A stretch of 64,000 nt of DNA, from NCBI GenBank assembly GCA_019915135.1, contig JAHLMK010000023.1, forward strand, positions 248,001 through 312,000, read 5' to 3'. The notes beneath the pieces are model-generated. The model saw only the letters and a list, made by a program, of their open reading frames with translations. It had not been told where the DNA came from and did no database searches. Position 1 is the first letter of the stretch, and the number at the start of each line of letters is the position of its first letter. This DNA is from Strobilurus pachycystidiatus (Eukaryota > Basidiomycota > Agaricomycetes > Agaricales > Physalacriaceae). Below are positions 8,838 through 64,000 of this stretch, piece after piece. The position numbers and the translations under genes were made by a program.

Positions 8838-8941
8838 CGACGCCAGCAGGATTTGAACCTGCGCCCTCAAAGAGGAACAGATCGAACATTTTCCTTTTCA
8901 TGAATTCTAATCTGTCGCCGTAACCACTTGGCTATAGCGCC
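8838..8941 (-). tRNA. tRNA-Ser(AGA) with intron
   Basis: Third AGA copy. The acceptor, variable arm and T-arm match the other copies; the intron after TTAGAA is about 22 nt with unrelated sequence. Confidence 0.93.
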
Positions 8942-38324: not shown

Positions 38325-39077
38325 TGATGATAGAAGTGGTCAAGTAGAGAGACGAGGCTCATGGCTTTGATTTGGTTACCCACAGGATTTATACCACTAG
38401 TATGACAGTTCCGTGTTGTGTCCTTGTTCTCTATTTTTTTTTGTTACCGGATTGTTTCATCTATACCACACATTCAGCCTATCTCTCAGTTGTACACCAC
38501 ATTTCTATGCTCACTAGATTACTTACAAATAGTTGTAATTTTTGTCAATTTCGTCTTCGATAGTACTATTACTACTGCTACCATGTACTTTTCCTGGCAG
38601 ACCCGTCGAGGTCCGAGCGAGCGGCCCCGGTAAAGGGTGTGGTATGCCACTATAAGCCCAGGCAGAAGCGCCGAAGCTGATACAGAGAAAGTGCAGCCTG
38701 TCAATCACGAACAATGAAAGTCGAAACACCAGTCTCGATGCCATGGCCAGGAACGACCTCCCTCCCTCCGCTGTTTACCTGACTTCCGTATAGAACCAGG
38801 GGGATGGCCTGTATAGAACTCTGGATTTCATATGCGCACGACAGCTGAACGCGTAGCATTCTGACCCCCGGCACGGAGAACTCCCAGCATAGTCCTGACG
38901 ACCACCAGAGACCTCAGTCCATTGAATTTCAGTCATGTAGATAAGATATACATCATGTGCTGCGCTACCATCACGGTACAGCTTATCAAACATCACTGGC
39001 CTGGCCAACAAAGATGCAAGTTCGACTGAGAGTGATGAGGGTACCGTACCAAACGTCATGTTCCATGTAGGTGAGAC

Positions 39078-40854: not shown

Positions 40855-41335
40855 GTTACAGTGGATCGGAGAAGGGGTGTGCTTTGAAACGATGGTTCAG
40901 CATGAGAATGCAGATATTTAAGTTAAGACAGTGGGAGAATGTTGGGGTTGATTGCTGACGTCCATGATCAGAGATAAGCATCCCCACGATAACGTGCAGA
41001 TGGAGATAAGGCAGCGGTCAGAGTAGGCAAGGACTGACTGACTTGTCATGGTTCAGATGTCCTTCTGGAGGTAAGCAATTGGCAAGGTGGGGCAGTGTCC
41101 GTTCCGTGGATTCAACAGGACACGGATATCCGACGGAAAACGATTGAAAGCAGACGAGCGGCCGGCCACATTGCGTTATATGAGAAACATATGACGTCCC
41201 AGAGTCGTCCCATTATGTCCAATGCTTCTTGTAGGGCCATGTAGGTAAATGAGCGTTGCAATGTATCAAATCATGAAGTTTTCTGGTTCGACGTTGTCAG
41301 AGGACTAGACCGCGTCGAAAAATCTAGACGATACT

Positions 41336-44640: not shown

Positions 44641-44641
44641 C

Positions 44642-44839
44642 ATGGCAGGTTCAACAGCCTCGCAGGTTCCTCAAACGGGACAGCTGGCTCGGTCGTATCG
44701 TGAGTTCTTTCATTCATTTGTTTGCTGAATCGTCTCGCCTATTCACTGTACATTCACAGCCGAGCTACCACTACTACGGGGATACAGTAACGACCGTCTC
44801 AAGTTTCATACCATAGCGACCGATAATATTTGTCCTCTC
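44642..44839 (+). pseudogene. Possible 5' remnant of a gene
   Basis: An ATG at 44642 opens MAGSTASQVPQTGQLARSY. A plausible GTGAGT...TCACAG intron then gives PELPLLRGYSNDRLKFHT before a stop inside the convergent F-box gene. It sits at the right edge of the repeat-rich region. Looks like a truncated coding start, but chance cannot be excluded. Confidence 0.25.
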
Positions 44840-46202
44840 CTCTAGTTCGTGATAGCGCTTCACCGTCTGTCCACCCTTGTGAATTTTGCTCATGCATTTG
44901 GAGGATACCTTTCTCAGCCATTCACCATGAATTTCCACCTTTTTCGGCGTCCTCGCCATGAAGAAAACCCTTAGGTCGTCAACTACTCCGCGACCCCTCA
45001 GACTTTGCACCCAGGTTGTAAACTCGCCTTGGCAGAAAGTAGCCATGTTGAGCCACTCTTCTCTGCTAGGAATCTCGATTCCAACGTCGATCGTGAACCC
45101 GATATGCAGGCATTCTACGCGTTCGATCGTGCGCAAGGTCTTGATCATGCCAAGGGTATCTCGCACTGCGCCCCAAACTCCCAGGAAGGTGAGTGCCGTG
45201 CCTTTGAGGTTTACCTCCGTCTCCCATCTCTGAACTCCACCTAAATAGACTGAGATGAGAATCGGAGGCCCAGAGATGAACAACAGTAATCATACCTCGG
45301 TATCGCTTTGTGTCCAGCGTCAATGTTCTCAACGTCCGGCGGGATCCTTCCACAAGGGAGTTGACATCGCTGATGCTATACTTATTTGTGATCATCCACT
45401 TCAGTCTCTTCAAACCTGTAATGCTCTTCCACCATGCTTCGAAGCAGAACACTGTAGGTCCAGCCCAAAATGTCACGCCAAACTCCACATATTTCAGCGA
45501 GCGTAGTGCGACCTGAGCCTTCGACCACCGTGTTCTCCACTGCTCTCGACCAAGCGGAGGGAAGATGAACTTGTAGTGAGGATTGTCCCGATCGCTTATG
45601 ATGGACCCGGTCGACTGGACTCCCGTGAACGAAAGTACTCTGAGGTTGGGAGTATACGGGAGAACAAAGGCGAACAGACCCGGTAAAGATATGCGCCCAT
45701 TTTTGAAGGTAAAATACCTCAGATGAGGGAGTGAGTCCTTGTCGATGTTGTCGAGAAGCAGTGAAGTGGATGGATAAAGGCCGTTTTTATGGTTCCAGTC
45801 CAGCAATTGAATGTCTACCATCTCTAGAGACGACAGCGTTCGGAAACAGGACACGAGGGCCATGATATCCGGCAACGAGGACGGTTCCTCGCTCTCCAAC
45901 AGCAACAACGACTTCACCCAGACAGCGAGGTAGGCGTGCTTTGGATTTCGGATCGTCTCATGATATTCAAGAATCTACTCAGTGGGCTGAACATTATTTC
46001 ATCTATTTCTGACCATTTTTGCACGCACCGTCGATGGCTTTATCTTCTTGATGACGACTTCACGGAAGACTAGAGGTCCCAGCCCGGCATTGGCTGTCTT
46101 GCTGACACTACGAGTGTCCCTCAACGATTGCATTCCGTCGCTGCAATCCTCCAGGAGATGTCGACCCATCTCAGTCCACAGTTCTGCCGGCCAGTCGTCC
46201 AT
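44774..46202 (-). CDS. F-box-like/LRR protein, paralogue A
   Basis: The first exon starts DDWPAELWTEMGRHLLEDCS, an F-box-like helix. The main exon begins near 45917 and the last exon near 45250. The central segment reads GLFAFVLPYTPNLRVLSFTG, then QWRTRWSKAQVALRSLKYVE, FGVTFWAGPTVFCFEAWWKS and ITGLKRLKWMI. The same spaced residues (W..RWS..Q..L.SL, WAG, WW, GL..L.W) occur in the gene at 62848, so the two are paralogues. Its start is 113 bp from the divergent gene at 46315. Confidence 0.65.
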
Positions 46203-46314
46203 GGTAGAGTGTCGCGTCGAAGTATAGTTAACCCAATTTGGGTATGGTTCAGGCGATCACTCAATTCTGCTGACTTATATAGCGGTTCCTTCCATCGAGT
46301 TACCTCCGCCCACT

Positions 46315-48170
46315 ATGAGCACCCACCCCTCTGCCTCGATAGGTTACATCCCACTCGAGCTGGTCGACACCATCATCGACATTTTGTGTTTACAAGACCG
46401 CCTCTATGCACATTCCCTCATTCTTGTGTGTCGTTCTTTTTGCAGAGCGCGCAAATACCTCTTCCGCGAGGTCACTGTCGATGTCACTTATTCATCTCCT
46501 TATCGCGGTACAGCTGGCCTGGACACTGTTCCTCGTGTTCATGTCTCCCGGCTCTGGAAACCGACACCCTGCACACACTCGCCGGAGGTTGTGCTTTCAT
46601 TCTTCCAGAACGTCGGCGAGAGGAATGCTCCTCATGTTACTCAGCTCACCTTTCGAGGTCATGGTCCTCGGATACGGCGTTTTGGGCTAGAGTCAGACAG
46701 ACTGTCGAACTTCTCCGACATGGTTCAACTTTTTCCGCGCCTTCAGTGTCTTTCCTTTCGGGATTTTGACCTTCTCCCCATCACCCTCCCACCCGCTCAG
46801 CCCTCCATATCTCATTTCACATTCGACCATAGCATCGCCTGCCCCGCAGCTCCCTTTCATAGCCTTTTGCTCACTCTGGGGAGCATTACGCACCTGACTC
46901 TCATTGGCAGCACAGTCATCGATGGCGTTCCCGAATGGAAGCGTCGACCCTTTACGTTCCCCAACATACGCGTCTTGTCTATTACTGTCCGCCGATCCGC
47001 TCTGGAAATGCTCCTTTTCAGGGATTATTTCTTCCCCGCTGTCGCTGAGCTGCACATTACCGCGCCAATGCTCCACATTCAAAACATGGCCCGTGTCCTC
47101 AAACAAGCCTCATCCAGAGTGACCTCGATGTTCTTTTCCTTTGGTGAGCCCTTGACTGAATCAGAATCTTTTGTCTCATACTATTAGCAGCTTTTTTCCC
47201 CTACTATACTCCGAATGGACATTACAGCTATTCGTGGTATCAGCCCCCCGGTCCGTGGCCAGAGATCTTTGCGGAGATGCCCCTACTTCGGGACATCTCT
47301 GTTCGTCTTTCTGAGCCGGACTTATATGGACTGGGCACTCTCCTCAAGAATCTTCCCTATCCTCAAATCGAGACTCTCAGCATTCGCTTGCTTCTTTCCG
47401 GAGAGGTTCTCGAGGTTGCCGAGGGATTCAATAAACAGCTCGTCAATCATCGCATGGCTTACGAGGCAATCCAGGCCATCCGCACCACCATCTATCTCCT
47501 ATCATCCCTACCAACATTCCGCGGACCGGCCCGTCTGACTGTTGGACTGGATGTGGCATTCTTGGACATGTGGTCGTTCTATGATCGAGAGTGGTTCTTT
47601 GACCTCAGTACAGCCATTGTCGAACTCCTTGATCTTCCACCAGACAAGCTTCTCTTTGCGGTGGCGTCAGATACTGAACACCTCTTCTCAACAGAGGTGA
47701 GCGGTCGACAACGATTGGACCTCCGGGAAAGGTATTCGGCCATTATGGACGAGCACTACCAGTGGTCGCTCTACTACTGTCCCGATTTATGGAACAGCGC
47801 CGATGAGTATGGGAGTTGGCGGGACCCGACTGTCCGCCTCAATCTGATTGAAGCCAATAGCACAAATCTTCCGCTTCCGGTTCAGGAAGAGCCGCCAATC
47901 GACACTACGTACCCATATCAACCATCCGATACAAGCGACTGGTTCGACGATGTGACTCTTCCAATACAGATCTTTCCATGCTCTCTGCTTGAGGAGGATG
48001 GCTCGGACTTCGTCGATGGTTCTTACTTCACCTCTCCGACAAACAGAGCTGACCATATTGCAGACAGTCACTCGTCAACGTCGTCGCAGTCCTCCACAGA
48101 AGCCTCGTCAACGTCGTCGCAGTCCACAGAGGCTGATGCCAGTGGAGATTCCAATACAGAATCCTCTTAA
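46315..48170 (+). CDS. F-box protein
   Basis: Two exons, 46315-47143 and 47188-48170; the intron GTGAGC...CTATTAG keeps frame, giving 603 residues. The N-terminus IGYIPLELVDTIIDILCLQD then ILVCRSFCRARKYLFREVTV is a good F-box with the following helix. The middle has leucine-rich character; the C-terminal tail is Ser/Thr-rich (repeated ASSTSSQSS). Likely SCF substrate receptor, substrate unknown. The long second exon should not be read as an independent gene although it has its own Met at 47277. Confidence 0.75.
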
Positions 48171-48274
48171 TCGAACGATGGGGAAGACCACAGTGGGAAG
48201 AATGCCTCGGATCGCTCACAAAGTTGAATGAGGGGGGCTACAGCCGGTGTTGCGCAAAGAGTATAGAATGTCAA

Positions 48275-48961
48275 CTAGGTACTGCTATGCAAATCAACCA
48301 GTCTCGCCAACCGTTCAATTTCCTGTTGTTGTTTTTCGATCGTCATGGTAAGGTTTCCAGCCTCTTCCTCTGCTGCAGCCCTCTTTCTTCTCTCCTCGGC
48401 CAATGCCTTCTCACGATTGATAGCCTGCTTACGCTCGGCCCCCTTCAAGGTGGTGAAGATATCCTGGAACGACTGCTCTGTATCATTGACAAATTCGTTG
48501 GCATCAGCAGCGAATCGAGGCGAGATATAGCTAGTAAACGGAATGGAGTCGTGACGGTGTTGAGCAACAAAGTATATCCAGGAGTCGGTCTCAATGGCCA
48601 ACTCTTCGAGCTATGCAACGATGAGTGGAACCGTTGACACAATGCCTGGCGACTTACACGAGGAATGATCTCTCGGAGACTAGCACCAAACCGCTTCTTG
48701 GAATCCGAACTGCTGTCAATGACAGGACGAAGGGGCCTTGGACGCAGCACCTCTCGATACAACACCGTCAACAACGTACTACAGAGTAATAGAATCCTTA
48801 CCATAGACTTTATCGCCGCGATTGACACCAGATACCAGGCCATAGATATTGTTAGACTTAGAAGCCCGGATTCGTCTTCCATGGCCGTCGACTTTGGGTT
48901 TAGGGCGAGCAGTGGACTTTCGCGCTCCTTGGGGAGATGACATTGGCTGTGGGGACGACAT
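48275..48961 (-). CDS. Small protein with C-terminal coiled coil
   Basis: Three exons: 48961-48802, 48752-48658 and 48610-48275, with phases that fit exactly (donors GTAAGG and GTAAGT), 196 residues. N-terminal half is basic (GARKSTARPKPKVDGHGRRI) followed by VLRPRPLRPVIDSSSDSKKR. The C-terminal half runs SFQDIFTTLKGAERKQAINR into a charged coiled coil and a leucine-spaced end (IEKQQQEIERLARLVDL). No known family. It converges on the F-box gene at 46315 with a 104-bp gap. Confidence 0.6.
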
Positions 48962-49512
48962 CGCAACAGAAGGTGGCGTTTCCGGTCCAATAAATATCCA
49001 ATAAATATCTCAATGTCGAACTGCAATCGAATTCGGAGTTTGCCGATCAACATCAGACGTACCTCTCCTGACACGTGCTTGATGTAGCTTTGATCTTCGA
49101 AGTTCTACTGTCGTATTTGGACTGCGATGACTTTGAAATGTGGCAGCGGTGCAATCCTTGCTGAGAGCTTTCGTATTTTCTACCAAGCAGCCACAAGATG
49201 CAAGAGGACAAGTAGCAAGCATCTTCGAATCAGGCCCAACAAAGTTCCACATGTAAGTGGCAGCCATGCGCGCATTGTCGCACTTTGTAACTGTTCTGAA
49301 TTTCAAAAGATACTACCCCTATGACGGAGACAATATTTTCTTCTGTCGAATTAGCGCAAAATATTTGGTTGGTAAGTGGCAGAGAACGTCCGAATATCCC
49401 CATTCTCATATCGCTGTCTAGGGTCTCTATTTTCTCCGACTAGTGTTTAGAACCTCCTGCTCCGACCCGCTCTTAGAACCTCGCACTCAGCCTGATCGCT
49501 TTTTTCGATACG

Positions 49513-52500
49513 ATGCCACCAAAGAAGAACCTCTCAGTGGACACTACAAGTCCGGAATCCATTCAAAGTCATCTCAAGAAAGCTGAGGATGCTCTCGCCA
49601 AATTTGACGCGAAACAGGCTAGTTCGACAGTTAAGCACAGGCAGGCCACCATTGACAAGAACCGTACGCACTTCCTCGCCTGTTACTTTGATCTCATCTC
49701 ATGCTCTTCATCAGGAGCAATTCGCGTGGGCCTGTCTAATGAGATCGCCTCATATAAGGCGCAGCTACGTGGTGAGTTATCTTTGAATCGTCCTTAGTCT
49801 AGTACTGAGTCTTACCTCTCTAGCTCTCAAAAAAGCTCCTGATACGCAAGGGACTGATTCGGAGAGTGAGCTCTCTGAACTGCCTTCTAGTCCCGATGAG
49901 CTGTCTTCTCATGATGCGCACATTCACAAACCTCTGAAATTGGTGGTTCCAGTACTTTCTTCTGGCAAGTCAGACGTTTCGAAATCGATTTCACCTGTGA
50001 AGCGTACGACACGCTCCACCGCCTCATCTGTCGTCAGTCAATCTTAACTCCCTGCTCTTACATTATCTCACTCTGTCAAACAGACTGAGAGCAATGAACC
50101 CACAGTACCACCGACTCCTCAAAAGAGAAGGGGTAAACAGCGTACTGCATCCAAATTGACGCCGACTGTGGAACCCGCTGCATCGAACTCAGTGGTTCCA
50201 CACACTCCCACTTCCCAGTCGTCAACGGCTGTAGGACCTGTTGTTTTGAAGTCGCAGGTTCCACAAGCTCCTGCTCTCCAGTCGTTGTTGCCCCCGGAAC
50301 CTGCTGTGACGAAGCCGCAGGTTGTACACCCTGTTCAAGCCACAACGTCGCCGGCTGTAGAACTCGCTTCTCCACCCAAGCCTTTGTCAGATGTAAAGCC
50401 CGCTACATCACAGCCACGGGTTCCACCTCCTCCCCCGACCAAATTGTTGCCGGCCGTAGAACCCTCTGCATCGAAGCCACGGGTTCCACCTCCTCCCCCG
50501 CCCAAATTGTTGCCGGCCGTAGAACCCACTGCATCGAAGCTGCACGTCCCAAACCCTCCTGATCCTCAGTCATCAACGGCTGAAGAACCCACTTCCCCAT
50601 CCAAGTCGTCGCCGGCCGTAGAACCTGCTGCATCAAAATTGCAGGTCCCACACCCTCCTGCCCTCCAGTCGTCGCCGGTCGTGGAACCTGCTGCATCAAA
50701 GCCGCAGGCTCCAGATCCTCCTGCCCCCCAGTCGGCGCCGGCTGTTACCACTGCATCGAAAGCGCCGGTTTCACACCCTCCTGATCCCCAGCTGTCAACG
50801 GTTGAAGAACCCGCTGTCCCATCCAAGTCGTCGCCGGCCGTAGAACCTGCTGCATCAAAGCCGCAGGGTTCACGCCCTCCTGCCCTCCAGTCGTCGCCGG
50901 CCGTAGAACCTGCTGCATCAAAGCCGCAGGTTTCACGCCCTCCTGCCCTCCAGTCGTCGCCGGTTGTGGAACCCCCTGCATCGAAGTTGGAAGTTCCCCA
51001 CCCACCCCCTTCAGAAGCGTCTCAGCTATCTCGAGTCGCAGAGAATCCAGTGCCTTCCAAGACTTTGCCGGCGAGCGAATCTACTGGGAAGCACATCGTA
51101 TTTCATCATAATGTAAAAAAACAAGGCGAGCATCTCTTTCCTGACCTTTCGCGTCTATTGATGAGTATCCCAACAGATGGGATTTTGAACGAGAAAAGGA
51201 AGATATGGGAGAGGCCGGCCCAGCAAGGCTCAGGGAGTCTGGATGATCATCTAGATGAGAAGTCTAGTAAGTCGTCGGTTCTTAATTATCGTTCAACACT
51301 TACATTAATTACTGCTAGACTCGTCGAAAAAGGGTTGGAAACCGCGATCGAGAGAAGAGTTATTGGCTCAATTCAAAGCGCAACAAAGCCGAACTTCATC
51401 AGACCAGCCTTCGTCCCAACGTGAGGCAGGGAGCAGCAAACTGTACCGAGGCCTACCTCAAAGAATTCCTCCGCAACGACCCACATTTCCGGCAAGCTCT
51501 CCGACGAGTATCTCTGCTCCTCCAATTGTATCGGGCCTGGACCGCGAAACAAGCCATCAAGTGCGTTATAAAGTATGGCGCTCAGTAAAGTGATGTTCAT
51601 GCTTTTGTAGGAGCACACAGATATGGTGGTCGACACGTGCGATTCTTCCTCTGGTTCCAACCTTCAAGCCACATCTGCAGACCTATCGCCTGCACAGCAG
51701 ATGGTATGTATTTTAATTCATCAGCTTCTGGCCCTCTATATGCTGATGTCAATCCTCTCCAGGCTGACAACTTCATCGATCCCAGCTTGCTTGACATGAA
51801 CTCGAAAGCTTCTGTCTCTGCGCCACCAATGCAAGACGACACACATGTCTCCATTCAATACCTCCCAGTTGACGATCCTCCCCTTGATTCTGATGAACTA
51901 GCCTCCGGCATCCCCTCGCAACTCGTTGTACCGTCTGTTAAACGTCAACGGGAAGAGTTGGACGAAGTCGTTGCTCCCTCCAAGAAGAAGAGGACCAAAA
52001 AGAACGCCTCTTCGCGTACGACACTGAATGCCCAGACAATTCGGGCGCAGACTCCAATGCCTGTCAAGGACGAGGACGAAGACCCTGGAGATGGAGCCGA
52101 GCCAAGTGCGCGTAACTCTCAGAAGGAAGCTGACGCTGCCTTGAAAAAGGTATACTCGTTGAACTACCTCAAAAGACTTCAGGCTGTCGACTCTGACGGT
52201 TCAGAGCTTGAGGATTTGCGAGGTTGGTGTCTCTATCTCTTCTGTATCTTTGAGACATTGAAATATCGCATTCTAGAGCAAGGTCAAGCTGAGATTGACG
52301 CATATCTCGATAATTATCCTGATCCACCAAAGCTCTCCGCCGCTGTTCGAATGCTCGCGCGTGAGAACTCCTCATTTCTTCCACAAGCTGGGACAATCAG
52401 TCGCGAACTTGCACTTCATGTCCTTACCTCGCTGAACGGTAACACCATGTGCCGATACCATCACTATACGGATAAACGCAGTCTAGTGAACGACAACGAC

Positions 52501-52926
52501 ATTGCCTCTCCCTATGGTCACTTGACGGGTATTGAGGCACCTCGAGCCAGCTCGGCCAAAGGAGGTTCGACGCCTATCGAAGCAGGAAAACCGGCTCATT
52601 GCGGCTGCAATGTCGAAGATATCCTCTGGGACTTCTTTTTGTTCAAGTCCACCGTAATGGCGGGCAAGAATCAAATCGAGGAGGGTTGGAATGCCCAGTA
52701 TCTGCCGCCTCGATTACGAAAACTTACCCTCACTGCGCTTCAGAAGTACTGTTTTCTGACCATTAATGAGCTGTATAGCCACCCTTCCGGTCGTTCCTCA
52801 CTACGAGATGACGAAGCCATGCTGGAGCATACCATACGCTTGTGCACAGCCCAGCTCAGCCATCTAACGAAGGAAAGGGACCGCCTTCGGGTACAGAATG
52901 GGGCTGCTATTGGTGCCTTAGTGTAA
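49513..52926 (+). CDS. Large hypothetical protein with Pro-rich minisatellite
   Basis: Eight or so exons beginning 49513-49663, 49715-49771, 49824-about 50034, about 50087-51270, 51319-51558, about 51611-51701, 51764-52223 and 52274-52926; junctions checked are in frame. About 1,000 residues. The N-terminus is a short helix-rich region with Lys. The middle contains many diverged copies of a 21-residue unit like PPALQSSPAVEPAASKPQVS, encoded by a 63-bp minisatellite (about 50160-51000). A basic, nuclear-localisation-like KKKRTKKN follows (about 51990). The C-terminal ~220 residues look globular and include CGCNVEDILWDFFLFKSTV. Not recognised; first gene of a co-oriented block ending in the KDZ transposase. 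Confidence 0.6.
50160..51000 (+). repeat. 63-bp coding minisatellite
   Basis: Diverged tandem units of about 63 bp built around CCAGTCGTCGCCGGCCGTAG then AACCTGCTGCATCAAAGCCG. Their multiple-of-three length keeps the reading frame of the gene at 49513. Units near 50640-50970 are the most similar to each other. Confidence 0.75.
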
Positions 52927-53189
52927 TTTGGCTTTGTTGGTCGCCCTCAGACTCGTGTGGCGGAGTAATGAGATAACAAAGTGTAGTATGATTGGGTCTG
53001 GAATTCTGATGGTGTTATGAGTATTGCCGACATCCGTAGTAAATTAGTGTGAAATTTGTTTTGATATTTGAGATCCGCAGAGATCTGGAAGGAGGGATCT
53101 TCAAAGGACCTCAACATCGGACGTGCGGAATCATTAGGGATCAATATTGACTTTTTCGGAATCCCTGATCTCTTCAGAGCTCTCCCATC

Positions 53190-53854
53190 ATGCCCCCGTA
53201 CGACGGAACAGTCTCAATGGCGCACTTCCAACGTGGTCCACACTATGAGGGAAACGAGAAGTTGCAGACGTACGAGCTTCTCTTCCTTCTAGTAATTCTC
53301 GACGATCTGACGTACCCAGCATGCTCAGTAACAGCTGTCGCAAGCTCCATGTTGAGAAACAGCTTCAACATTCGGGAGAACGTGTGTTTCTTGCTTCCTC
53401 CCGTTACATTGAGTAGCTAACAGAAACCTCTAGGCCGTACGAATCCACACTGGCCAATGTCATACAGTCTCGGCACCATTCTGACTCGACTGAACGGCGA
53501 CTGGCTGATTCTTCCGCTACTGGCGTGTGGCGTCTTCAGCCATGAAAATATTCCTCGCTTCAAGGGGCCACTTGGATATTGTGGGTATGATCGTATACTT
53601 TTTGAGGCTCTTGGCATTCGTAGCGGAAGCCGTAACGCCCACTTGTTGTTGGTGTTCTTGGGAATGCATCCCGAGGAGGAGATCCAACGCCCAAGTGAGC
53701 TTCATTTTCTTTCGAGAGGCGTTCGCCTAAACTTGTACTCTTAGGCCCATCTTTGGATCTTGCGATGCCTATTGACATATTCCACGGTGATTTACGTCAC
53801 GGTTCTACGCCGGCGTGGAGGAGAGACAAAGATAGCCCACAGTCAGAACCTTAG
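53190..53854 (+). CDS. Four-exon orphan protein
   Basis: Exons 53190-53291, 53345-53381, 53434-53694 and 53745-53854 join in exact phase (GTAATT, GTGTGT and GTGAGC donors), 169 residues. The third exon encodes the most protein-like part, SYSLGTILTRLNGDWLILPL to HENIPRFKGPLGYCGYDRIL and HLLLVFLGMHPEEEIQRP. The last exon gives DLAMPIDIFHGDLRHGST. No family recognised. Lies in the same-strand block upstream of the TET/JBP gene. Confidence 0.45.
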
Positions 53855-54063
53855 CTCGATCTTATACACTGTAGAATATTGCCAGTAGCCCAAGTTTTTG
53901 TTTGATGAAACACGAGTCCCGCTTGTTCAACAATAGCCTGATCAGGAAAGTGTCAGTAACCATCTTGGGCAACTTTGTCGGACCGCATATTCCGTCTTGT
54001 CTGAGGCGTCGCAGATCGAGTGTAGGAAACCACAACTAAATTGTACCTTGTATCAAGGTGAAG

Positions 54064-54208
54064 GAAGGTTTAACGGGTGAAGGAAGGTTTAACGACTCAA
54101 TCAGCATTGATTTCAGTGAGGACTATGAGTTATAGAACGATTAAAACTGGGTTCCTGTAAAGAATCCTATAAAAGTCCTATAAAAGTCCTATAAAAGTCC
54201 TATAAGAA
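54064..54208. promoter_or_regulatory. Short direct repeats with four TATAAAAG-like boxes
   Basis: Two copies of GTGAAGGAAGGTTTAACG (about 54058-54093) are followed by four copies of TCCTATAAAAG/TCCTATAAGA at about 54164-54208. They end about 130 bp before the ATG at 54337. The tandem TATA-like boxes could position transcription of that gene; function is inference. Confidence 0.4.
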
Positions 54209-54336
54209 TTACACGGGACTCATGCTCACAAGCGTATTGTTACTTCATCATAAGCCACTTCCTTGCACTGCTGTCCTGTACGCTTGTCAGCACGTGGTGT
54301 TTACTCGTCCTTGCGGCTACCATTCCTTCTACCACC

Positions 54337-55003
54337 ATGGGTCGCAAGCGCATATACCAGACTGCAGAGCAAAAAAAGGAGGCAAAGCAGGCAGCGAGAA
54401 TGCGGTACTACCGTCGGTACGCACACATCCATTCATATTCATTTGAAGCTTCGACTTATATGAAAGTGGCGTATAGGCATCGCAAGCAGATCAAGCGAAC
54501 GCAGAATGCAAAATACGCGGCTAGACGTGACAAGGAGGCAGAGAAAGACCCAGAGAAGCTAGTCAAACGTCGGTCAGTGGCGATGTCTTCAAAGTGAGTC
54601 ATTAAAATGTCAACTTGAACTGGAACTGACTCAATACAGAACCGTGGATCATCATCTCGAGAACTTAATCTCTCAGGCCAGACGACAAGACGAGAAACTC
54701 AACAGCCTTACCAGCGGGGACACTTGTACCTTCGTACTATCCCTGGGGGAGGACTGTGCGGAAATGGACTCCGAGAGCGCTCAAGCCGCTGTCGAGTCAA
54801 TATTGAAGACAGTCATTGACATGCACGCTCCGGCTCGAAAGGCATTGACCAACATCTACCAGCGGTACGGAAAGGGAGAACCAGCGTGGTCCGAGGCGCA
54901 TACTATCGGTCAACGGTTCTATGACATTGCGGAGAGGCTGGATAGAATGGTACGGGCGTTACAGGACGATACTTTGCAGGATTATATACAGTCTCTAGTT
55001 TGA
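54337..55003 (+). CDS. Short basic GRKR-type protein
   Basis: Exon 1 begins GRKRIYQTAEQKKEAKQAAR then MRYYRR. An in-frame 60-nt intron (54417-54476, GTACGC...GTATAG) is likely, because removing it gives the continuous basic run RYYRRHRKQIKRTQNAKYAA. A second intron is GTGAGT (54594)...TACAG, with the last exon 54640-55003. The C-terminal half is an acidic helical region (AQAAVESILKTVIDMHAPAR). About 186 residues. The GRK-x-x-Y-x-T-x-E-x-K start followed by an Arg/Lys helix recurs in many Agaricomycete hypothetical proteins; DNA binding is plausible but unproven. Confidence 0.55.
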
Positions 55004-55080
55004 ATGTGAATCATGTGTTGCCGGTAGAATTGTAGTGAAAGCGAGTGATCGGCTCTTCTCTTGCTTGACTCTTGACCACT

Positions 55081-55567
55081 ATGTCCGCGTTCGATAGCCT
55101 CCAGAAAGCCTCTGGCCGTGAGTCACTCTCTGGTCATTCTTCGGTGACTTACCAGTAGCAGCGCCTACTCCCATATATCTCTTCGATCCCATCCTGACTG
55201 AGGATGACTTCGCCACGGGTGACACTGTGTACCGCGTCGGGGAAGTCTACGCCAAAGTCCCGGTAGCCGCTCTTCGTCCCATACACATCATCGACCATCC
55301 TGGCTCATACGTCCGATTCTATGTTATTCTCCGTGGCCGTCATGTTGGGATTGTTCTGTCAGCGTCAGTGTTCATTCATGGCACTTTCATCCAAGCCCGT
55401 TCTGACAATGTTTGGGCGCCAGTGCCGAAATGCTCAGAGAGACTCACGGTGCCTCTGGTGGATACGGTTTCAAGTATACGCATCAGGGCGATGCGGTTCG
55501 TGCCTTCAATGACGCTTTGCGAAACGGAGAGGTTCAAATTGTCGGCGCCAGAAAACCACGCTCGTAA
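55081..55567 (+). CDS. RNase H1 N-terminal-domain-like protein
   Basis: Three exons, 55081-55117, 55159-55363 and 55423-55567, joined in phase (GTGAGT, GTCAGT donors; branch-like TTCTGAC before the second acceptor). The assembled C-terminal part contains YVILRGRHVGIVLSAAEMLR then GASGGYGFKYTHQGDAVRAF. This fits the small RNA/DNA-hybrid-binding fold at the N-terminus of RNase H1: YxxxRGRxxGI, a G-A/S-GGY-x-x-K turn and a final AF helix. No RNase H catalytic domain follows. GTAAGT at the apparent stop suggests the gene may continue through another short exon to about 55675. Confidence 0.45.
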
Positions 55568-56819
55568 GTAACCTCAGTAGGCTTGTACCATCACATTCAG
55601 ATATCTGACTTGAGGAAATGCTCCCAGATCTATAGAATCTGTGAAGCGAGGTTTCATCTGTTGCGTGGTAGTATAGTACACGAATTGTCCTGCGAGCGCA
55701 CCTCACAAGACGAATATGAACATATCCAGAGGTGTACTAAGTCCTCTCCGGCCCGCTTCCAGAATTTCAATACGCATGCCGCACCATCGTGACATCCAAG
55801 TGGGTGTTCAGTGATACAGGCACGCCACTTCAAATATTATCACTGTGTCAGGTATCAGCGGTATTGGAGATTGTTTCACGCACCGCATGCTCCTTGACAT
55901 ACTCTGTAATCTGACTGCATTTCTGATAGCAAATAATTTCATGCGTCATAATGGTGGCGCACCTGAAATCCTCAGCCTTGAGGAAGTACGATCGATCGAC
56001 AGAAAAGCCCCATGGATGCTAGCCAGAACAGAACAGTCCCGTGGAAGCTATCAGTCCACGCGGCACAAATTGGCAATGGTTGAGGGGTATTGAGGCAATT
56101 GAGGCATGATCGTTGCGCCTAACGGCTGCATGCAACAGGTCATATGTGGCGCAGCACCTCAGAAATGATGGTTGTTACCCTGATAAGATACCGAGAACTT
56201 TTCTCAAGAAGGCGTGGTAAGCAAGCTCAGCAACGGTTGGCTCAAGAGGACTTGGCAGCCCGCGTGTACCGGTGACATGCGCATAGCTGAGAAATGAAAT
56301 AGAGGCAGACAGGAGTAGGAAGGCGATAATGAACCCTCGACATAAGCCGAGAAAAGAGCGGATGCCGGCCATCGGCCGCCATGCGGACCAATCGGATCGG
56401 GCGCCGTACCTTCGCTCTTTACTGACGACTGTCTCCTTCGTAATATGAGAGCCGTCCTCGCTTGCAACTCCAGGAGCTCAACTTGCGCTCACTTGTGAAG
56501 TGCGCAATGGAGCAGCAGGAGGTGTTGACGGACATTGGTGGGTTGCCGTTTACCACTCGTGCGCGTCAGTCTCAACTGACTTATCAAATTCTAAGAATTT
56601 CAACTGACTTAGCACTACTGCGACGCCCAGGTTTCTGGACCTCGGGATATTCTCTACCCGCGTCGGGTTTCCATACCTGTGGATCATTGACGTGGCCTGA
56701 GCGTTTGTCCATGCGTCCGTGGAACCTGTGGAAGTCGCAGGTTTGACAACCTTATCAGCAATTTCAATCACCTCGATGCTATTTAAGCTGGCCGAGGACT
56801 CCAATTGCATGGTAACTCG
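55568..56819. other. Intergenic region, no confident gene
   Basis: Open frames are short. A minus-strand frame at 56372-56175 starts with a hydrophobic helix (FIIAFLLLSASISFLS) but has no supporting exon. From about 56620 to 56750 several AGGTTT/ACCTGT motifs resemble those of the 43-44.6 kb repeat region. Confidence 0.45.
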
Positions 56820-56893
56820 ATGGCACCGCCCACATCTGGTGAGTAATATTCTCGCCCTTTCCTCTTACGCCCCTCGCCTTTCCTCATACCGGC

Positions 56894-57121
56894 ACTCCCG
56901 CCCTTGGGAGACGTGTCGCCATGTTGGTGATACTTTGCCACCAGAGTCGTTGGCGGATCTCACACTCCCGCCCTTGGGTGAAGTGGGGACGCCTCGACCA
57001 GTTCATCATCGGGTATCGCATCCCCGCCCCTGGGTGAAGCAGCCTGTCGTACGATCGCGCATCCCGCCCTTGGGCGGCGCGTCTTGTTCTGTTGTATGAC
57101 CGCGCACCCCCGCCCTTGTGC
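56894..57121. repeat. Five CCGCCCTTGGG boxes in intron 1 of the TET/JBP gene
   Basis: Motifs related to ACTCCCGCCCTTGGGAG occur at about 56894, 56964, 57019, 57060 and 57105, spaced 40-70 bp. They lie inside the inferred 379-nt first intron (56839-57217), unusually long for this genome. Could be transcription-factor sites or a decayed minisatellite. Confidence 0.7.
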
Positions 57122-58434
57122 GGCGCATCTTGTCATCTTATGGCGCCTTCCTCCCTCTGGTTCTCTTATAGCGTTGTGATTGTTGTTGAGTGTGATGGTG
57201 GTACTTATCATTCCTAGGTCGTGTCACTCGCCAGGCCATGTTGCCCGAAATCTTTGCCGACTCGGACAACAACCTCCAACTGGACTTCGACCTTGCCTCT
57301 CTGTCGTCCCGCGTCCCCGATGTGGACTCCGACCTTGACGACTCTGACTCTGAGGGTGATGGAACTTGTAGCGGCAATCTCGAGGCTGAAGAGTCTGCGG
57401 GCAGTCGGGCTCCAGCTTATGGTCGCAAGTGGCACTCCCCTGCCGCTGACGATAGTCCCTCGGTTCCCCCGCTATCCGGAAAGGCTCGACGCAAGCAACG
57501 GTCGCGTCAAAGTGAGCGCAATAAGCGTTATCTCCAGAGAGCGGAGAGAGCGTTGGATGAAGAGATGGATGCCATCGAGAAACGCAGTCGCGGCAAAGGC
57601 CTGGTAAGTTTAATTTATTCATGCTTGTATTGGAGTACTCACCAATGCGTAGGGAACCAAGGACTGTCTACGCCGACGCATCAAACGCATTGATCCCATC
57701 AGTGCCGATTTCGAGACCCCCTCTACTGGCTATACTGGTCCTCGCCGTTCAAGTGCTAAGATGCAAGGTCCCAAGCTTCGCAACATTCACGACAATCCAG
57801 AGGGTTTCGCACTGAAGTATAACCTTCATATTTTGCGTTGGAACGGCAAGTAAGTCGTGAACTCTATCTTTCTTTCAACACAAATTCAACATCTTTATGA
57901 AGAGATCCCGTCCGCATTCTGGACAAGCATCGTCGTCTGATTACGTACCTTGCAGGCCGTCCCACTGACGAGCCGGATCGCCCGCCACACACCAATTGGG
58001 ACCTTCTCATGAAGCGACTAACTGTGATGTTTGCAGAGGCTGAGCAGCAGCTCAAGCTGCCTGCTTGTAATCGCAATCATCGCCGCGGCCCGTACGACAG
58101 TATCGCCATTGGGCCGTCGCTGGGCAATGGCCAGAAATACCCAACGGACCTTCAAATCTCAGCTTGGAACCAGGCCATTCTTGAGCGTCTGATGAACACG
58201 GAGGAGATGTCGCGAGTGATCGGTTACATCAATAGTGAGTACTCTTCGTCGTCTTTACGTCCTGTTTTCTCATGCGACCTCAGGAGCCTTCGAGACTGCC
58301 CTTCCAGAGATGCACGACGTTTACCAATCGACTCTCAATGGATTTCTCGACCATCATCCTCTCCTTCGCACGGCGTTCGAACATTCACCATTCTCTACGT
58401 GCACCTTCAACCTTGGTACCAGCAAAAGACCCGC

Positions 58435-59042
58435 TGATAGACTTGCAGTTAATCTGAAGTCTAATCAGGCATGTTAGCTCAGTGGTTAGAGCATCCCAAC
58501 TAGACTGAGAAGGTCTCTGGTTCGATTCCAGGACAAGCCGCTTTTAGTCATTCTGCATTTGGGATTACATAATGCACAACATCTGGAGCCCACCCCGGAC
58601 CTGATTATCTAATCAGGGACGAACCCCAGTGCAACATGTAATCCTAGTCAGGTGACTTTGAGTGTCCTCACCCTACTTTGGAATAACAGTTAATAGTCGC
58701 ACAATGATGACGGAGCTCTGTTGTGTCACTTCCTTGCTCGCTGAAATCCTGTGAGTCCGTGGTCTAGGCTGCGGCGGGGACGCCGCGATTTCAAAGAAAG
58801 AGGGGAATGATAGACTTGCAGTTAATCTGAAGTCTAATCAGGCATGTTAGCTCAGTGGTTAGAGCATCCCAACTAGACTGAGAAGGTCTCTGGTTCGATT
58901 CCAGGACAAGCCGCTTTTAGTCATTCTGCATTTGGGATTACATAATGACTGAGCTAGAGCATCCCAACTAGACTGAGAAGGTCTCTGGTTCGATTCCAGG
59001 ACAAGCCGCTTTTAGTCATTCTGCATTTGGGATTACATAATG
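58435..59042. repeat. tRNA-derived (SINE-like) repeat array, three copies
   Basis: Identical 140-bp units at 58435-58574 and 58808-58947, and a third copy lacking the 5' half at about 58948-59042. Each full unit has a 73-nt tRNA-like core (58468-58540, 58841-58913) with A box TTAGCTCAGTGG and B box GGTTCGATTCC. A 7-bp acceptor pairing (one mismatch) is followed by G and a TTTT. The anticodon stem has a mismatch and position 33 is C rather than T, so it is not a normal tRNA. The tail TCATTCTGCATTTGGGATTA plus CATAATG follows every copy. A 233-bp unrelated spacer separates copies 1 and 2. Confidence 0.85.
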
Positions 59043-59602
59043 CACAACACCGCGGCTACCGAAAACCATCTTGACTCGCAGAACAAAGCTGCTGGGGTCT
59101 GCAGCACCACTGCGGGCGGGCCGTTTGACCACAAGCAGGGCGGACATCTCATCCTGTGGGACCTGAAGCTCATGATTGAGTTTCCGTCGGGAAGTACCAT
59201 TCTACTTCCATCCGCGATCATCGAACATAGTAACTTTCCTGTGGCGCGAGGCGATCATCGGTGGTCCTTCACTCAATACACAGCCGCAGCGCTGTTTCGC
59301 TGGGTGGATAATGGCTACAAGAGCAACAGAGCTATCCTGGAAGGAAAAGATAAGGAGGAGATTCGTCGTTGGGAGATCCGTCAGCAGCAAGTGTGGGCGG
59401 AGGGATTGGACCTTTTCCCTCGTGTGTAAAGTTCCATATACTACATTCAGCTCTATACTACAATTTTCATGCGTGCTTTACTTGTCCGAAAAATTATGCA
59501 CTGATTCAAAATGATGTTTGCATATACATGGGATCGAACTTGGAAGCCACTGCGATTGTAAAAGACGTGATCGATTATTTCACTTGTTTTCCTTCTGTCT
59601 GT

Positions 59603-62600
59603 ATGGCTCCGATTCAGTCACGCCCACGAATACCCATTCCGCCTTCTCCTCCTAAAATTCGAAAACAGAGACATGTCCCAGTCCTACTCAAGAGCCCACA
59701 GAAGGTGGCGCTTGTACGACGACCTGTCAATCAACGACGCGCCAATGACAATCCGCGTCAGCGCGTACAAACGGTAGACAATGCTCTCAAGGAATTCGTT
59801 GAGGAGCATACCTCGACCCCGGATGGTAATGGACCCACACCTGGCGCGTCGTATGAACTAACTCCCGTCAGTGACTTGGCAGCCGGATCAGTCATTGCTT
59901 GAGATCATACTGCAGAATCAGCCTGTACACGACGACCCACCTGATAACCACGACCCGCCTGACATCTCAGACTTCATGACAGAGATGGACGTCAACGACA
60001 GCAACGCTGCACCCCACTCCACTTTACGCCAACCCGATTGCCATGCTTATAACTATCTGGATTATATGGAGGCTGTGAATGCCGACGATGGTGGATTTAT
60101 TCTGTTGCAACACAATCTCTACATCGTTCAGGGCTGGGACTACATTCACTCCCGTATCTTGGTACGCACAATTCCAAGCATTCATATGGAGCTCTGAATG
60201 TGTGTTACTACCTGTCAGGATATATGGTACCACTTCCGTTGCGTAACTATTGGCTCCAAGTTCAGCATACAATGCGACTGTCCAAAAGGGAAGAGTACTG
60301 AGTGGATGTGCGTGCACGAGCAGTACTTCAAAGAGTACCACGAAGATCGGTTTGCCAAGGAAGAGTTGGTTTATGAGACCGGTACGTCCGCTTGGTCTCT
60401 TTCGCCTTGCATAATGCTCATATAGTGTGGGCTTGCGTAGGTCAGGCCGTTATAATGTTTGCAACCAGTGATCAGGAGAGTTTATTCTCCGTGAACGGTA
60501 CGCGGGATGGACTGGAGGATCTGACGAAGCGTGTCATCGTTTCCGTTCGGTCTCGACAGGGTGACGAACAGATGGACGGCGAATGGGAATGCGGTCGAGA
60601 GCCTGGTCGTATGTGCGATCACATCTCCAGGACCAAGCGACATCTGGCAGAGCTACTGGCTGGCAAACCGCTCAATGACGAAGAAACTGCAAGAATTGTA
60701 TCTGGGTATGACGAAGACGTCGAAGGGGATATGCCTGGTCAGTGGATCTTGTATGAACTTGATACTATTGCCTGACTTCGTGCTATGAACAGATGCCTAT
60801 AACAGTCGGAAGGTCACTAGTCATGCGGATCTGGCCTCCTCATATCTTCCCATTCGTCCTCCAAAGTGGGCATCACTGGAGACAGACGTTGGGCTCTACC
60901 CGCGAGTGCCACCCATTCGAAGTTCATTTATGGGGGTTTTGAAGTTGACAGCTGATAGCGCATGTCCCTGCTCTACGACACACCGAACCAAATTCCTTCC
61001 TGATCACCCAATCGACACAATCACTGCAACTCTTTACACGCTCACTCAGGCGCTTTCTATCGAAATCGAAGTACAACTCTGCAGTTCTTGTCCTGCTGTG
61101 CGTCGTAGATGTATCGGACCAGAGGGACGCAAATTCGGGATCTTCAATTATAACAACAAACGCCTATTCACGCACGATCTGCTCGAGGACTATACTGCTG
61201 CCTTTACGTCTTCTGAAACCCCCTTTGATGCGTTTGTTGGATGTGTAGCAAAGCGGTATGACGCCCTAGATCAGACATTTGTCTCCAAAGGCCTTTTTCG
61301 TTCGGCCTGGTTTGCATATGCACGCCTCCTTCATTTTGAGGACGACATGATATGCAGGGCGTGCGGACCAACACCAAACGACGTCATATTCGATGGAACG
61401 GTAGTCGCATTTGGCAAGAAGCATCGCTTGGACACACTCGAGCCTCCTACAACGGTGAACGAGCAATTCTCACCTTGTCGAGCAGACATTCGGTATCCCA
61501 AAAAAACACAGTTCTTCCCCTCACGGGACCTTCGACGATGGATCCGACAAGTTCTCAGTGCTAGCAAAGGTTCCACGTCGACTACAAGCCCTGACGCCGA
61601 CGCCTTGGAAATACAAGCTCTTGAGATCAACAAGAGGATTTCCGAGTGCACCAGTATATTGCAAAAGATTCGGCCTACACTCGCGTGGCTATTCGAGGAG
61701 GACTTTGGGTTCACACCCTTTGCGGAAGGTAGACGGCCTCCAGCTGAGCGCAAGGACTTCTGGTTCCAGGTACGTCTCTTATCAATCACATTCACGTCGA
61801 CTTAGTCCTCCCACATAGCTCTCATCACACGAATCTGTCCTTCAGACGCTGACACATAATGCTGGTGCAGATCTCAGTCGATATCTTCAAGACCCGTCCG
61901 ACTTCAATCTCTCCAAACTGGTCATCGTTCCCTGTGTATACAACTTACTCGTTCAACATCGTCTGCGAAAAGGATCAAATTTGACTTGGATAATGGACGT
62001 TTGTAGCTGGATGGTGACTCGAGTACAAGACGTCCAAGCGCAAGTCGTTGTCCCTCGCGATGTCACCGCAAACTATGACTTCAATTTTGCTGACCATCTA
62101 CCTAGCTGGGAGGAGGTCAGTCCACGTCTGCCAGCTTCTCTTCGCTTCATAATTGTCAATGACAAACTCTTCCAGACTGGATGTCTTTACAGCATGCCCC
62201 AAATTCGATTTCGACCCAGTTATCCTGGACTGAAGCATGATTCTTCCGTCGAGCAGGTAAAAAAGCAAGATGAGACATGTAACAAGTTCTACGCCTCATA
62301 CGGGGCGCGTCGACTCACCGGAGGTATCATGTGTGCATGGTGCACGCACAGCATCTGCTACGGTTTCCACTGTATTCCAACGGGAGAGGGGCGCAACGAT
62401 GTTTTCTCAGCCATTTGGACACGTTGGCCACAGGCTCCCAAGCGTATCATCTATGATTTCGCGTGTGCTCTGGGGCCATACTGTTTGACACGCGAGGGCC
62501 AATTTTTCAGTGACACATTCTTCCTCATTGACGGCTTTCATTCGAAGGGCCACACAAAATGTTCACCTGCCTGTTTTGTGCAAACATATGTTCCATTGGA

Positions 62601-62763
62601 TCCGGAGCTCGGCAAGGTGAACACGAGTGCAGCAGAATGTGGTAACGGAGGGCTGAGCCGAATCAAGAAGTCTGTGAGTTATATGGGCCAACGTCGAGCG
62701 GTAATCTACATGCGGACATTTGTATGTATCTGGAACCGTATGAAGATGCGGCGAATGGAGTAG
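59603..62763 (+). CDS. KDZ-type transposase (Kyakuja-Dileera group-like)
   Basis: DNA transposase of the Kyakuja-Dileera-Zisupton superfamily, about 950 residues, six or so exons; introns near 60162-60218, 60380-60440, 60736-60793 and 61770-61846. Near the N-terminus FSIQCDCPKGKSTEWMCVHE is a CxCx(n)CxH SWIM-type zinc finger. Next come cysteine clusters like those named CxC5/CxC6: SACPCSTTHR, LCSSCPAVRRRC and DDMICRACGPTPNDVIFDGT. The catalytic region reads TGGIMCAWCTHSICYGFHCI, RIIYDFACALGPYCLTREGQ, IDGFHSKGHTKCSPACFV and NTSAAECGNGGLSRIKKSVS then YMGQRRAVIYMRTFVCIWNR. The segment around 59774-59881 changes frame, so an extra intron or a frameshift lies there. Starts 173 bp after the TET/JBP gene, same strand. 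Confidence 0.8.
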
Positions 62764-62847
62764 TAATTGTTACAGGGATGACAAGTCCGAAAGCGATAGA
62801 TAAGATCAAAACAACGATTGCATACTCATCGTTGTCACTAGCACATC

Positions 62848-64000
62848 ATGAACAGTCTTCCAGCGGAGACCTGGGGTGAGATAGCAGAGCAATTGGACCC
62901 TACCTGCGACTTTGCTACACTCTGTAATGCTAGAGGTGTCAACCGGATGGCCCACGACGTGTTGAGTCCGATACTCTTCATGTCGATTACGATCTCTGAT
63001 TTCCATGACACAAAGGTGAGGAGAGGATTTACATTGGACCGAAACCAGACTTACATTTCGCAGCTCATCTCGAAGAGCGCCTTCTTTCTTAACAACCCAG
63101 ATACACCTATCAAGACCTGGGCAAGGTCCCTTACCCTATCGCAGGGCGCATCGGGTGTCGACACCAATGTCATGATGATCTTCCTCTCATTCTTCCCGGA
63201 GCTGCGGAACCTAACAGTCAATCAAACCGAATTCTATGACTGGACGCCCCAGGACGACGGATTCATCGGGCTCGTTAGGCATCAAGACCACCAGCCGCCT
63301 GTAGCCCCAAAGCTGCAGGCATTGCAGCTGCAGGACACCAACATGAATCTCCAGTGTCTATTCGGGCTTGTCCTTCCCTTCACCACAGCGCTGCGCACAT
63401 TGATTGTCGATGGACACCATGGCACGATGGGAGCCCGAGGGGGATTACTTGGCCCGCACGAAATTGGTCTCCGTGAGCGTTATCCGACCGAGGAAGACCG
63501 GCTGGAATGGGAACGTCGCTGGAGCGCCTCCCAGAATACGCTGTCATCGTTGAGAGTATTGAAGATGGGCTCGACATGGTGGGCCGGGGAAGCTATGTCT
63601 GTCACGGTCTACCCGACGTGGTGGTCGGGCTTGGTTGGGCTTGAGGAGCTACACTGGGCGGTACATCAGAGGCATAGCAGGAAGTTGTGTGAGCGCGTCG
63701 TCCAGCAAAGCTCGAACACCTTGAAGTGTGCACAGATTCAGATTGGCAGTGAGTAACGTTCAATCATGTGGCGTTCGCTGAGAGATCAATGAAACAGACT
63801 CAAGAACCCTGGATACAAGGATGACGTTGGAAAACGCCAGACAGCTCGAGCACTTGACCGTTCGAGCATCCCAAGCGGACACTGAATATGTCCTGCAGTC
63901 GCTCCAAGGAATGACCGAGTCTAAACGAGTGCAATGGCTTCGAGTTGTCTGGGTTCTTGGTGTGAAACTCACCAAATCAAATCGAACCCGGATGATTCGA
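62848..64000 (+). CDS. F-box-like/LRR protein, paralogue B (cut by window end)
   Basis: Exon 1 62848-63748 ends A|GTGAGT; exon 2 starts 63798 and is still open at the window edge. N-terminus NSLPAETWGEIAEQLDPTCD is F-box-like. The body has LQALQLQDTNMNLQCLFGLV, then EWERRWSASQNTLSSLRVLK, MGSTWWAGEAMSV and WWSGLVGLEELHW, matching the protein at 44774-46202 in spacing and key residues. Lies 84 bp downstream of the transposase stop, so any right end of the mobile element must fall in that gap or inside this gene. Confidence 0.65.

What the first reader, a model, noticed from the sequence alone, without database searches (positions are those of the whole stretch)
56820..62763. TET/JBP DNA dioxygenase next to a KDZ transposase: a DNA-modifying mobile element
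A Fe(II)/2OG dioxygenase with HxD, distal His and Arg in place sits 173 bp from a transposase with SWIM-like and CxC clusters and a KDZ-like core, same strand. Genomic linkage of these two families in basidiomycetes is established. Here it raises the question whether the element, or others it serves in trans, modifies host or its own DNA.
Basis: partly seen in the sequence, partly recalled or inferred. Interest (0 to 1): 0.85.

Follow-up and report, generated by a model that had tools for sequence, protein, structure and literature searches.

The report
24-kb transposon carrying a TET gene
In a mushroom-like fungus, a gene for a likely DNA-modifying enzyme sits beside a transposase inside one large jumping element with clean insertion scars; past selection preserved both genes, although in this copy the enzyme gene has since been interrupted by a smaller jumping element.

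Summary
The adjacency is real. The dioxygenase is TET/JBP by predicted fold (a 45%-identical relative models closest to CcTET, NgTET1 and TET2, ahead of FTO and AlkB). Its neighbour is a 940-aa SWIM/CxC4-KDZ transposase. Both lie inside a 23,965-bp element (window 42795 to 66759, past the window's end) with inverted subterminal repeats and the 8-bp duplication CGTCTCAA. A 36.3-kb sister on contig C3 has its own duplication (ACAAAGGG), as do a 20.4-kb relative on C17 and a 5.2-kb one on C14. Between C23 and C3 the dioxygenase and transposase diverged together (dS 1.1-1.6, dN/dS 0.04-0.10) while the ends stay nearly identical: an old constrained core in young ends. TET-carrying KDZ transposons are already described (Kojima 2025), so this is a variant: large, CxC4 type, with a TET lacking CcTET's Gly331/Asp337. 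Which base it oxidises, if any, is not shown.

The parts
42787..42794 (.). left copy of the 8-bp target site duplication CGTCTCAA (right copy at C23:314760-314767, outside the window)
42795..64000 (+). giant KDZ element, part inside the window; its right end (CACCTGTCCC) is at C23:314759 = window position 66759; 23,965 bp in all
   Evidence: boundary of homology with C3:670503-706817 plus an 8-bp duplication on each copy
42823..42901 (+). left subterminal inverted repeat, 81% to 66653-66731 on the other strand
43075..43886 (.). 406-bp tandem duplication inside the left end, also present in the C3 copy at 99%
45066..45974 (-). open frame, possible cargo gene of unknown family
   Evidence: no Pfam match
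46228..48170 (+). two overlapping open frames (46228-47187 and 47160-48170), possible cargo gene, F-box-like only by eye; dS 0.02 and 0.10 to C3
   Evidence: no Pfam match
51589..52926 (+). open frame of 445 aa, orphan; its C3 counterpart has 3 stop codons, so it may not be a gene
   Evidence: no relatives
56820..56838 (+). putative first exon of the TET/JBP gene (ATG to GTGAGT)
   Evidence: direct reading; not tested with RNA
57218..58434 (+). TET/JBP gene, exons 57218-57603, 57653-57849, 57903-58234, 58284-58434
   Evidence: homology with C3; splice sites by reading
58435..59049 (+). Helenus-type TRIM retrotransposon inside the TET/JBP gene: LTR1 58435-58581, internal 58582-58807 with primer-binding-site-like and polypurine stretches, LTR2 58808-59049 with a 95-bp tandem duplication; tRNA-Leu-like genes 58468-58541 and 58841-58914; 4-bp duplication CCGC at 58431-58434 and 59050-59053
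59052..59429 (+). last exon of the TET/JBP gene: HxD at 59067-59075, distal His 59226, Arg 59259
59603..62763 (+). SWIM/CxC4-KDZ transposase, 940 aa, exons 59603-59825, 59872-60161, 60219-60381, 60426-60737, 60793-61769, 61846-62115, 62176-62763; candidate catalytic D 61392, D 62455, E 62635
60942..61319 (+). CxC4 cysteine cluster (PF18717), residues 380-505
62842..63756 (+). open frame downstream of the transposase, possible cargo, F-box-like only by eye; dS 0.05 to C3
   Evidence: no Pfam match

Best explanation
This is a large cut-and-paste DNA transposon of the KDZ class. Its SWIM/CxC4-KDZ transposase binds the inverted subterminal repeats and inserts the whole unit (20-36 kb) with an 8-bp staggered cut (8-bp duplication shown; excision and transposase action inferred). 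The TET/JBP dioxygenase is one of the element's own genes: it has diverged together with the transposase under strong purifying selection (shown for the C23/C3 pair). It most likely oxidises modified bases on the element's or nearby DNA, so that host methylation does not silence or block it (inferred). The window copy has probably lost its own dioxygenase to a later TRIM insertion and, if still mobile, would rely on dioxygenase made elsewhere; the C3 copy has the opposite defect.
Against: No activity, expression or methylation data. The window copy's TET is interrupted and the C3 transposase has an in-frame TAG at C3:688935, so neither TET-bearing copy is complete. The related C17 element shows no TET match (10.5 kb of its middle was not read), so TET is not needed by every member. 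49 of 70 TET-family loci have no listed KDZ within 5 kb (the KDZ list was cut, so this is an upper figure). The TET lacks Gly331 and Asp337 of CcTET. For the partial model of the element's own exon the margin over non-TET folds is small: a prolyl hydroxylase ranks above NgTET1 in Foldseek. No such ends were seen in the stretches read around the CxC4-KDZ genes of C5, C15 and C38. No empty site of the 24-kb element was looked for.
Confidence: 0.72

Rival explanations
1. Segmental or haplotype duplication of a chromosome stretch that happens to hold a TET gene and a KDZ gene, rather than transposition of one unit.
For: The C3 and C23 blocks are collinear over more than 20 kb.
Against: Homology stops sharply at both ends, each copy has its own 8-bp duplication, and two further loci show the same end type with other duplications. 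The flanking HSP60-like frame has one match in the genome.
Confidence: 0.04
2. The dioxygenase is a passive passenger caught between the ends, of no use to the element.
For: C17 element without a TET match; the window copy is interrupted yet the element persists.
Against: dN/dS 0.04-0.10 at about the same silent divergence as the transposase; repeated KDZ linkage genome-wide; 12 of 21 linked pairs have TET upstream on the same strand.
Confidence: 0.13
3. The dioxygenase serves other elements or the host in trans, with many of the ~70 loci feeding a shared pool; individual copies can be lost without cost.
For: About 70 loci of the family, 49 not within 5 kb of a listed KDZ gene; TET interrupted in C23, transposase broken in C3. 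Kojima 2025 notes oxidised 5mC on retrotransposons too (PMC12730594, first part of section 4 read).
Against: Purifying selection on the element-borne pair suggests a benefit in cis or to the lineage.
Confidence: 0.35
4. The dioxygenase is another 2OG oxygenase (AlkB/FTO or prolyl hydroxylase type), not TET/JBP.
For: No match to the Tet_JBP model above cut-off (13 matches in the genome, 0 over cut-off); no sequence match to CcTET at E up to 1, or 5 with the profile; PF13640 (2OG-FeII_Oxy_3) matches 11 of 37 members, best 0.006, which is the value of the window's own exon; two relatives are called prolyl 4-hydroxylase by their source.
Against: Fold comparison puts CcTET, NgTET1, TET2 and CMD1 above all others; Tet_JBP matches 10 of 37 members at E up to 1, best 0.0011; 7 of the 13 Tet_JBP matches in the genome fall on loci of this family.
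Confidence: 0.06

Closest known systems
TET+ Kyakuja and Zisupton transposons of Agaricomycetes (Kojima 2025, PMC12730594; abstract, introduction, section 2.1, sections 3.1, 3.2, 3.4, first part of section 4 and passages read)
   Same: KDZ-class transposase and TET/JBP gene inside one unit with target duplication; 8-bp duplication as in Zisupton
   Different: Kyakuja is reported with 7-bp duplications, CA..TG ends and no TIRs, not so here; AG-type TET of Kyakuja keeps CcTET Asp337 and Gly/Ser331, here Cys and Asn; the body here is 20-36 kb (sizes of Kojima's families not seen)
Active KDZ1-KDZ3 of Cryptococcus (PMC12810828, passages read)
   Same: KDZ core with a cysteine cluster, TIRs, 8-bp (KDZ1) or 4-8-bp duplications
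   Different: about 9-11 kb, CxC1 instead of CxC4; the passages read mention no TET gene
CcTET of Coprinopsis cinerea (PDB 7vpn, 7w5p, 8jkk)
   Different: 16% identity; Gly331 and Asp337 replaced by Asn and Cys
Helenus TRIM (Kojima 2024, PMC10886601, abstract and passages read)
   Same: short LTR element with a tRNA-like gene in each LTR, primer-binding and polypurine stretches; reported from three Agaricomycetes
   Different: 4-bp duplication at both copies here, fungal Helenus reported with 5 bp

Membership tests
TET/JBP dioxygenases | double-stranded beta-helix fold closest to TET enzymes | tested here: met
TET/JBP dioxygenases | HxD, distal His and 2OG-binding Arg | tested here: met
TET/JBP dioxygenases | match to Pfam Tet_JBP (PF12851) over its cut-off (a usual but not a defining sign; fungal members can be too diverged) | tested here: not met
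   0 of 13 matches in the genome over cut-off; 10 of 37 family members match weakly, best 0.0011. Membership rests on the fold and the triad
TET/JBP dioxygenases | oxidation of 5mC or another base in DNA | not testable with these tools
   no biochemical data
AG-type TET (Kojima 2025) | Asp at CcTET 337 and Gly/Ser at 331 | tested here: not met
   CcTET HRDTSGPIEGMD (numbering by spacing from HxD) against HLDSQNKAAGVC here; Asn and Cys at 90% or more in the family
PE-type TET (Kojima 2025) | HxE instead of HxD | tested here: not met
   HxD present
KDZ transposases | KDZ catalytic core (PF18758) | tested here: met
   at family level: 22 of 30 aligned members match at E up to 0.1, best 8.3e-7; 6 of the 29 relatives were picked because they carried that annotation. 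The window protein itself has no match up to E 10 but shares D530, D839 and E899 with them
KDZ transposases | associated cysteine cluster | tested here: met
   CxC4 PF18717, E 7.5e-40
Zisupton | TIRs and 8-bp target duplication | tested here: met
   the inverted repeats of the 24-kb copy are subterminal and 81% alike. Dileera is also reported with 8 bp
Zisupton | placement with Zisupton in a transposase tree | not tested
   no labelled reference sequences at hand
Kyakuja | 7-bp target duplication, CA..TG ends, no TIR | tested here: not met
   8 bp at the 4 loci whose ends were found, ends C(A/G)GATA..CCC, inverted repeats present
Helenus TRIM (the insert in the TET gene) | tRNA-like sequence in both LTRs | tested here: met
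   Rfam tRNA 52 bits in each; LTRs of the C19 copy identical, 147 bp
Helenus TRIM (the insert in the TET gene) | 5-bp target duplication in fungi | tested here: not met
   4 bp at both copies: CCGC (C23) and GCGG (C19); hence 'Helenus-type', not filed as a fungal Helenus

The most novel reading that the evidence does not exclude
The dioxygenase and transposase form one exchangeable, co-selected cassette that is swapped between giant elements with otherwise near-identical ends, and this TET lineage (Asn/Cys where CcTET has Gly/Asp) has a different base specificity from the known fungal TETs; damaged copies persist because the two proteins work in trans across copies.
Probability: 0.2. Interest if true: 0.75.

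Novelty: new variant of a known kind. Interest (0 to 1): 0.5.

Why it matters
Whether fungal transposons use TET enzymes against silencing is an open question (PMC12730594 says the function is not experimentally validated). This genome gives a test case: a defined 24-kb unit, one sister with an uninterrupted dioxygenase and a broken transposase, another the other way round, a related element without a TET match, and an enzyme lineage whose active site differs from CcTET. The dN/dS result ties selection on the dioxygenase to that on the transposase.

Tried and rejected
Considered and rejected: the insert as a plain SINE or a pair of host tRNA genes (it has TG..CA LTRs, a primer-binding-site-like stretch, a polypurine stretch and a 4-bp duplication). 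C3/C23 as two haplotypes. PF20515 as the family of this TET: 3 matches in the genome, none at this locus, and one of those exons has no match to CcTET. A genome-wide search with the 37001-57000 stretch did not list even its own copy or most of the C3 copy, so absence in such DNA searches is not evidence. Cargo genes: of 10 translated open frames (8 from the window, one each from L029 and L028) 9 have no Pfam match up to E 1 and one a chance-level match; the 445-aa frame has no relatives, so no cargo function is claimed. tblastx rows carry linked E-values; short rows were ignored. Sequence searches of the TET protein against solved structures gave nothing relevant although the fold search did. 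The paper by Iyer and others (2014) that first described the TET-KDZ linkage is not held; it is known to me only through PMC12730594 and recall. Paper searches for CxC4/SWIM KDZ and for giant or F-box-bearing KDZ elements listed nothing on a TET-bearing CxC4 element; that is no proof that none is in print.
Full report
WHAT WAS CHECKED. The window is C23:248001-312000 of an unnamed 51.8-Mb genome in 61 contigs. Apart from a few relatives without a name, the listed relatives of both proteins come from mushroom-forming fungi (120 of 233 and 105 of 105 listed), so the host is most likely an agaricomycete (inference).

THE TRANSPOSASE. Splicing six short GT-AG introns (chosen by reading and by comparison with C3, no RNA) gives an uninterrupted 940-aa protein. 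It matches CxC4, 'cysteine cluster associated with KDZ transposases' (E 7.5e-40), and nothing else in Pfam up to E 10. I aligned it with 29 of the 120 listed relatives, 6 of them chosen because they carry a PF18758 annotation (6 of the 120 do). Of these 30 members 30 match CxC4 and 22 match the KDZ core model PF18758 at E up to 0.1, best 8.3e-7; the window protein is not among the 22. D530 (90% or more), D839 and E899 (invariant) are candidates for the DDE triad and D864-x-F-H867...H871..C874 (invariant) for a metal-binding part of the core (roles inferred). The SWIM-like C190, C192, C202, H204 are at 90% or more.

THE MOBILE UNIT. A diverged copy of both genes sits on C3. Its homology with C23 starts at window 42795 = C3:670503 and ends at window 66759 = C3:706817. 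Both units begin CAGATAG and end CACCTGTCCC; an inverted subterminal repeat of about 80 bp (81%) lies near each end. The repeat core is found in exactly these four places at 0 mismatches (two further hits at 3 mismatches, one control hit). Each unit has its own perfect 8-bp direct repeat: CGTCTCAA on C23 and ACAAAGGG on C3. Two relatives found by their ends do too: C17:641962-662359 (20,398 bp, holds a CxC4-KDZ gene, ATTACCGT) and C14:822886-828077 (5,192 bp, TIRs 98% identical over 402 bp, AATAATTC); most of the C14 unit and 10.5 kb of the C17 unit were not read. For C17 the duplication was read off the left flank and then found once in the 12.5 kb searched, directly after a sequence like the right end. 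In the 20 kb read on C5 and on C15 and the 10 kb on C38, no such ends were found. The HSP60-like frame (named by eye) 20 kb to the left has a single match in the genome, and with the sharp ends this argues against uncollapsed haplotypes. The C3 unit is longer because of about 12.8 kb of extra sequence between C3:693826 and 706604, which holds repeated open frames, probably a nested element.

MOSAIC AND SELECTION. Identity between the C23 and C3 units in 300-bp bins is 97-100% over 42795-47594 apart from one bin at 91%, 60-96% from there to 62294, 86% in the next bin, and 92-100% over 62595-66794; 55995-57194, 58395-58994 and 66195-66494 gave no value. dS: three flanking open frames 0.02-0.10; two frames at 50-53 kb 0.35-0.51 (each with 3 stop codons in C3, so doubtful genes); dioxygenase 1.31 and 1.60; transposase 1.12, its last exon 0.61. 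So the dioxygenase-transposase core is much older than the ends around it: cores (or ends) have been exchanged by recombination, with one breakpoint inside the last transposase exon (inference from the step in identity). Both proteins are under strong purifying selection at this depth: dN/dS 0.098 and 0.035 for the dioxygenase (345 and 124 codons), 0.082 for the transposase (923 codons, 1 stop codon set aside). dS above 1 is near saturation, so the ratios are rough, and they rest on one pair of copies.

WHO IS BROKEN. In the window the dioxygenase is interrupted by a 615-bp insert (58435-59049): two LTRs starting TG and ending CA, each with a tRNA-Leu-like gene (Rfam 52 bits), TGGAGCCCACCCCGGACC just after LTR1 (primer-binding-site-like, by eye), AAAGAAAGAGGGGAA before LTR2, a 95-bp tandem duplication in LTR2, and a 4-bp duplication CCGC. 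The C3 copy lacks the insert. The only other copy found, C19:545998-546517, has two identical 147-bp LTRs and the duplication GCGG. This fits Helenus, TRIMs with tRNA-like LTRs (PMC10886601), save for 4 bp instead of the 5 bp reported for fungi. The upstream frame ends at a stop at 58475. The C3 copy has an uninterrupted dioxygenase frame (475 aa) but a TAG in the transposase at C3:688935. Each copy thus lacks what the other has; whether they help each other is not known.

LINKAGE IN THE GENOME. The last exon as query finds 73 matches, the KDZ model 174 (listing cut), CxC4 six. I entered 71 of the 73 TET matches, leaving out two fragments inside or beside listed loci (C40:63144 and C42:81822); they merged to 70 loci. 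From the listed rows I left out N-terminal fragments lying beside an entered row and added the six CxC4 matches; these merged to 126 KDZ loci. In 12 of 21 TET lies upstream on the same strand. Of the 7 loci of this CxC4 transposase type, 2 have TET within 5 kb (C23, C3); C5 and C15 have a weak TET match (about 30% identity) about 14 kb away on the other strand; for C17, C38 and C10 one search shows none nearby.

MECHANISM. Shown: one unit, its ends, 8-bp duplications, uninterrupted transposase frame, TET fold (by models), shared purifying selection. Inferred: transposase cuts at the subterminal repeats and inserts with an 8-bp stagger, as active KDZ1 of Cryptococcus makes 8-bp duplications (PMC12810828, passages read); the dioxygenase oxidises modified bases on transposon DNA and so relieves silencing, as proposed for TET+ transposons (PMC12730594). 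In Laccaria and Coprinopsis 5hmC and 5fC are enriched at TET genes, and 5hmC was reported in transposons of Coprinopsis (PMC8889193, passages read), which is compatible with action in cis and in trans.

VERDICT. The kind is known (linkage first described in 2014, recalled; complete TET+ transposons in PMC12730594, 2025). This is a CxC4 variant, larger than the KDZ elements whose sizes I saw (9-11 kb in PMC12810828), with a divergent TET: a useful natural test set rather than a new principle.

Noticed in passing
window 58435-59049; C19:545998-546517 (L030): Helenus-type TRIM with a tRNA-Leu-like gene in each LTR; 4-bp duplications instead of the 5 bp reported for fungal Helenus; only two copies found by the polypurine-LTR junction pattern.
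   Followed up: yes
window 1817-1912, 5067-5169, 6988-7093, 8838-8941, 10212-10302, 26157-26252: Six further tRNA genes (Rfam), five of them within 8.5 kb and on alternating strands, 91-106 bases long, so probably with introns.
   Followed up: no
C14:822886-828077 (L048, L049): 5.2-kb relative with 402-bp TIRs 98% identical and an 8-bp duplication: probably a recently mobile small member; its inside was not read.
   Followed up: partly
C5:88001-108000 and C15:993001-1013000 (L038-L041): Two collinear stretches, 68-86% identical in pieces, each with a weak TET match about 14 kb from a CxC4-KDZ gene on the other strand; ends not found.
   Followed up: partly
C3:693826-706604 (L028): About 12.8 kb of extra sequence nested in the C3 unit, with the same open frame repeated about 6.4 kb apart.
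   Followed up: no
C10:584381-584840 (L050): A different TET gene in the same genome that does match CcTET by sequence (E 5e-6), so the genome holds at least two TET lineages besides the three PF20515 matches.
   Followed up: partly
window 50048-51424: Proline-rich open frame with 63-bp tandem repeats; off-diagonal alignments with C3 suggest that the repeats differ between the copies; may not be a gene.
   Followed up: no
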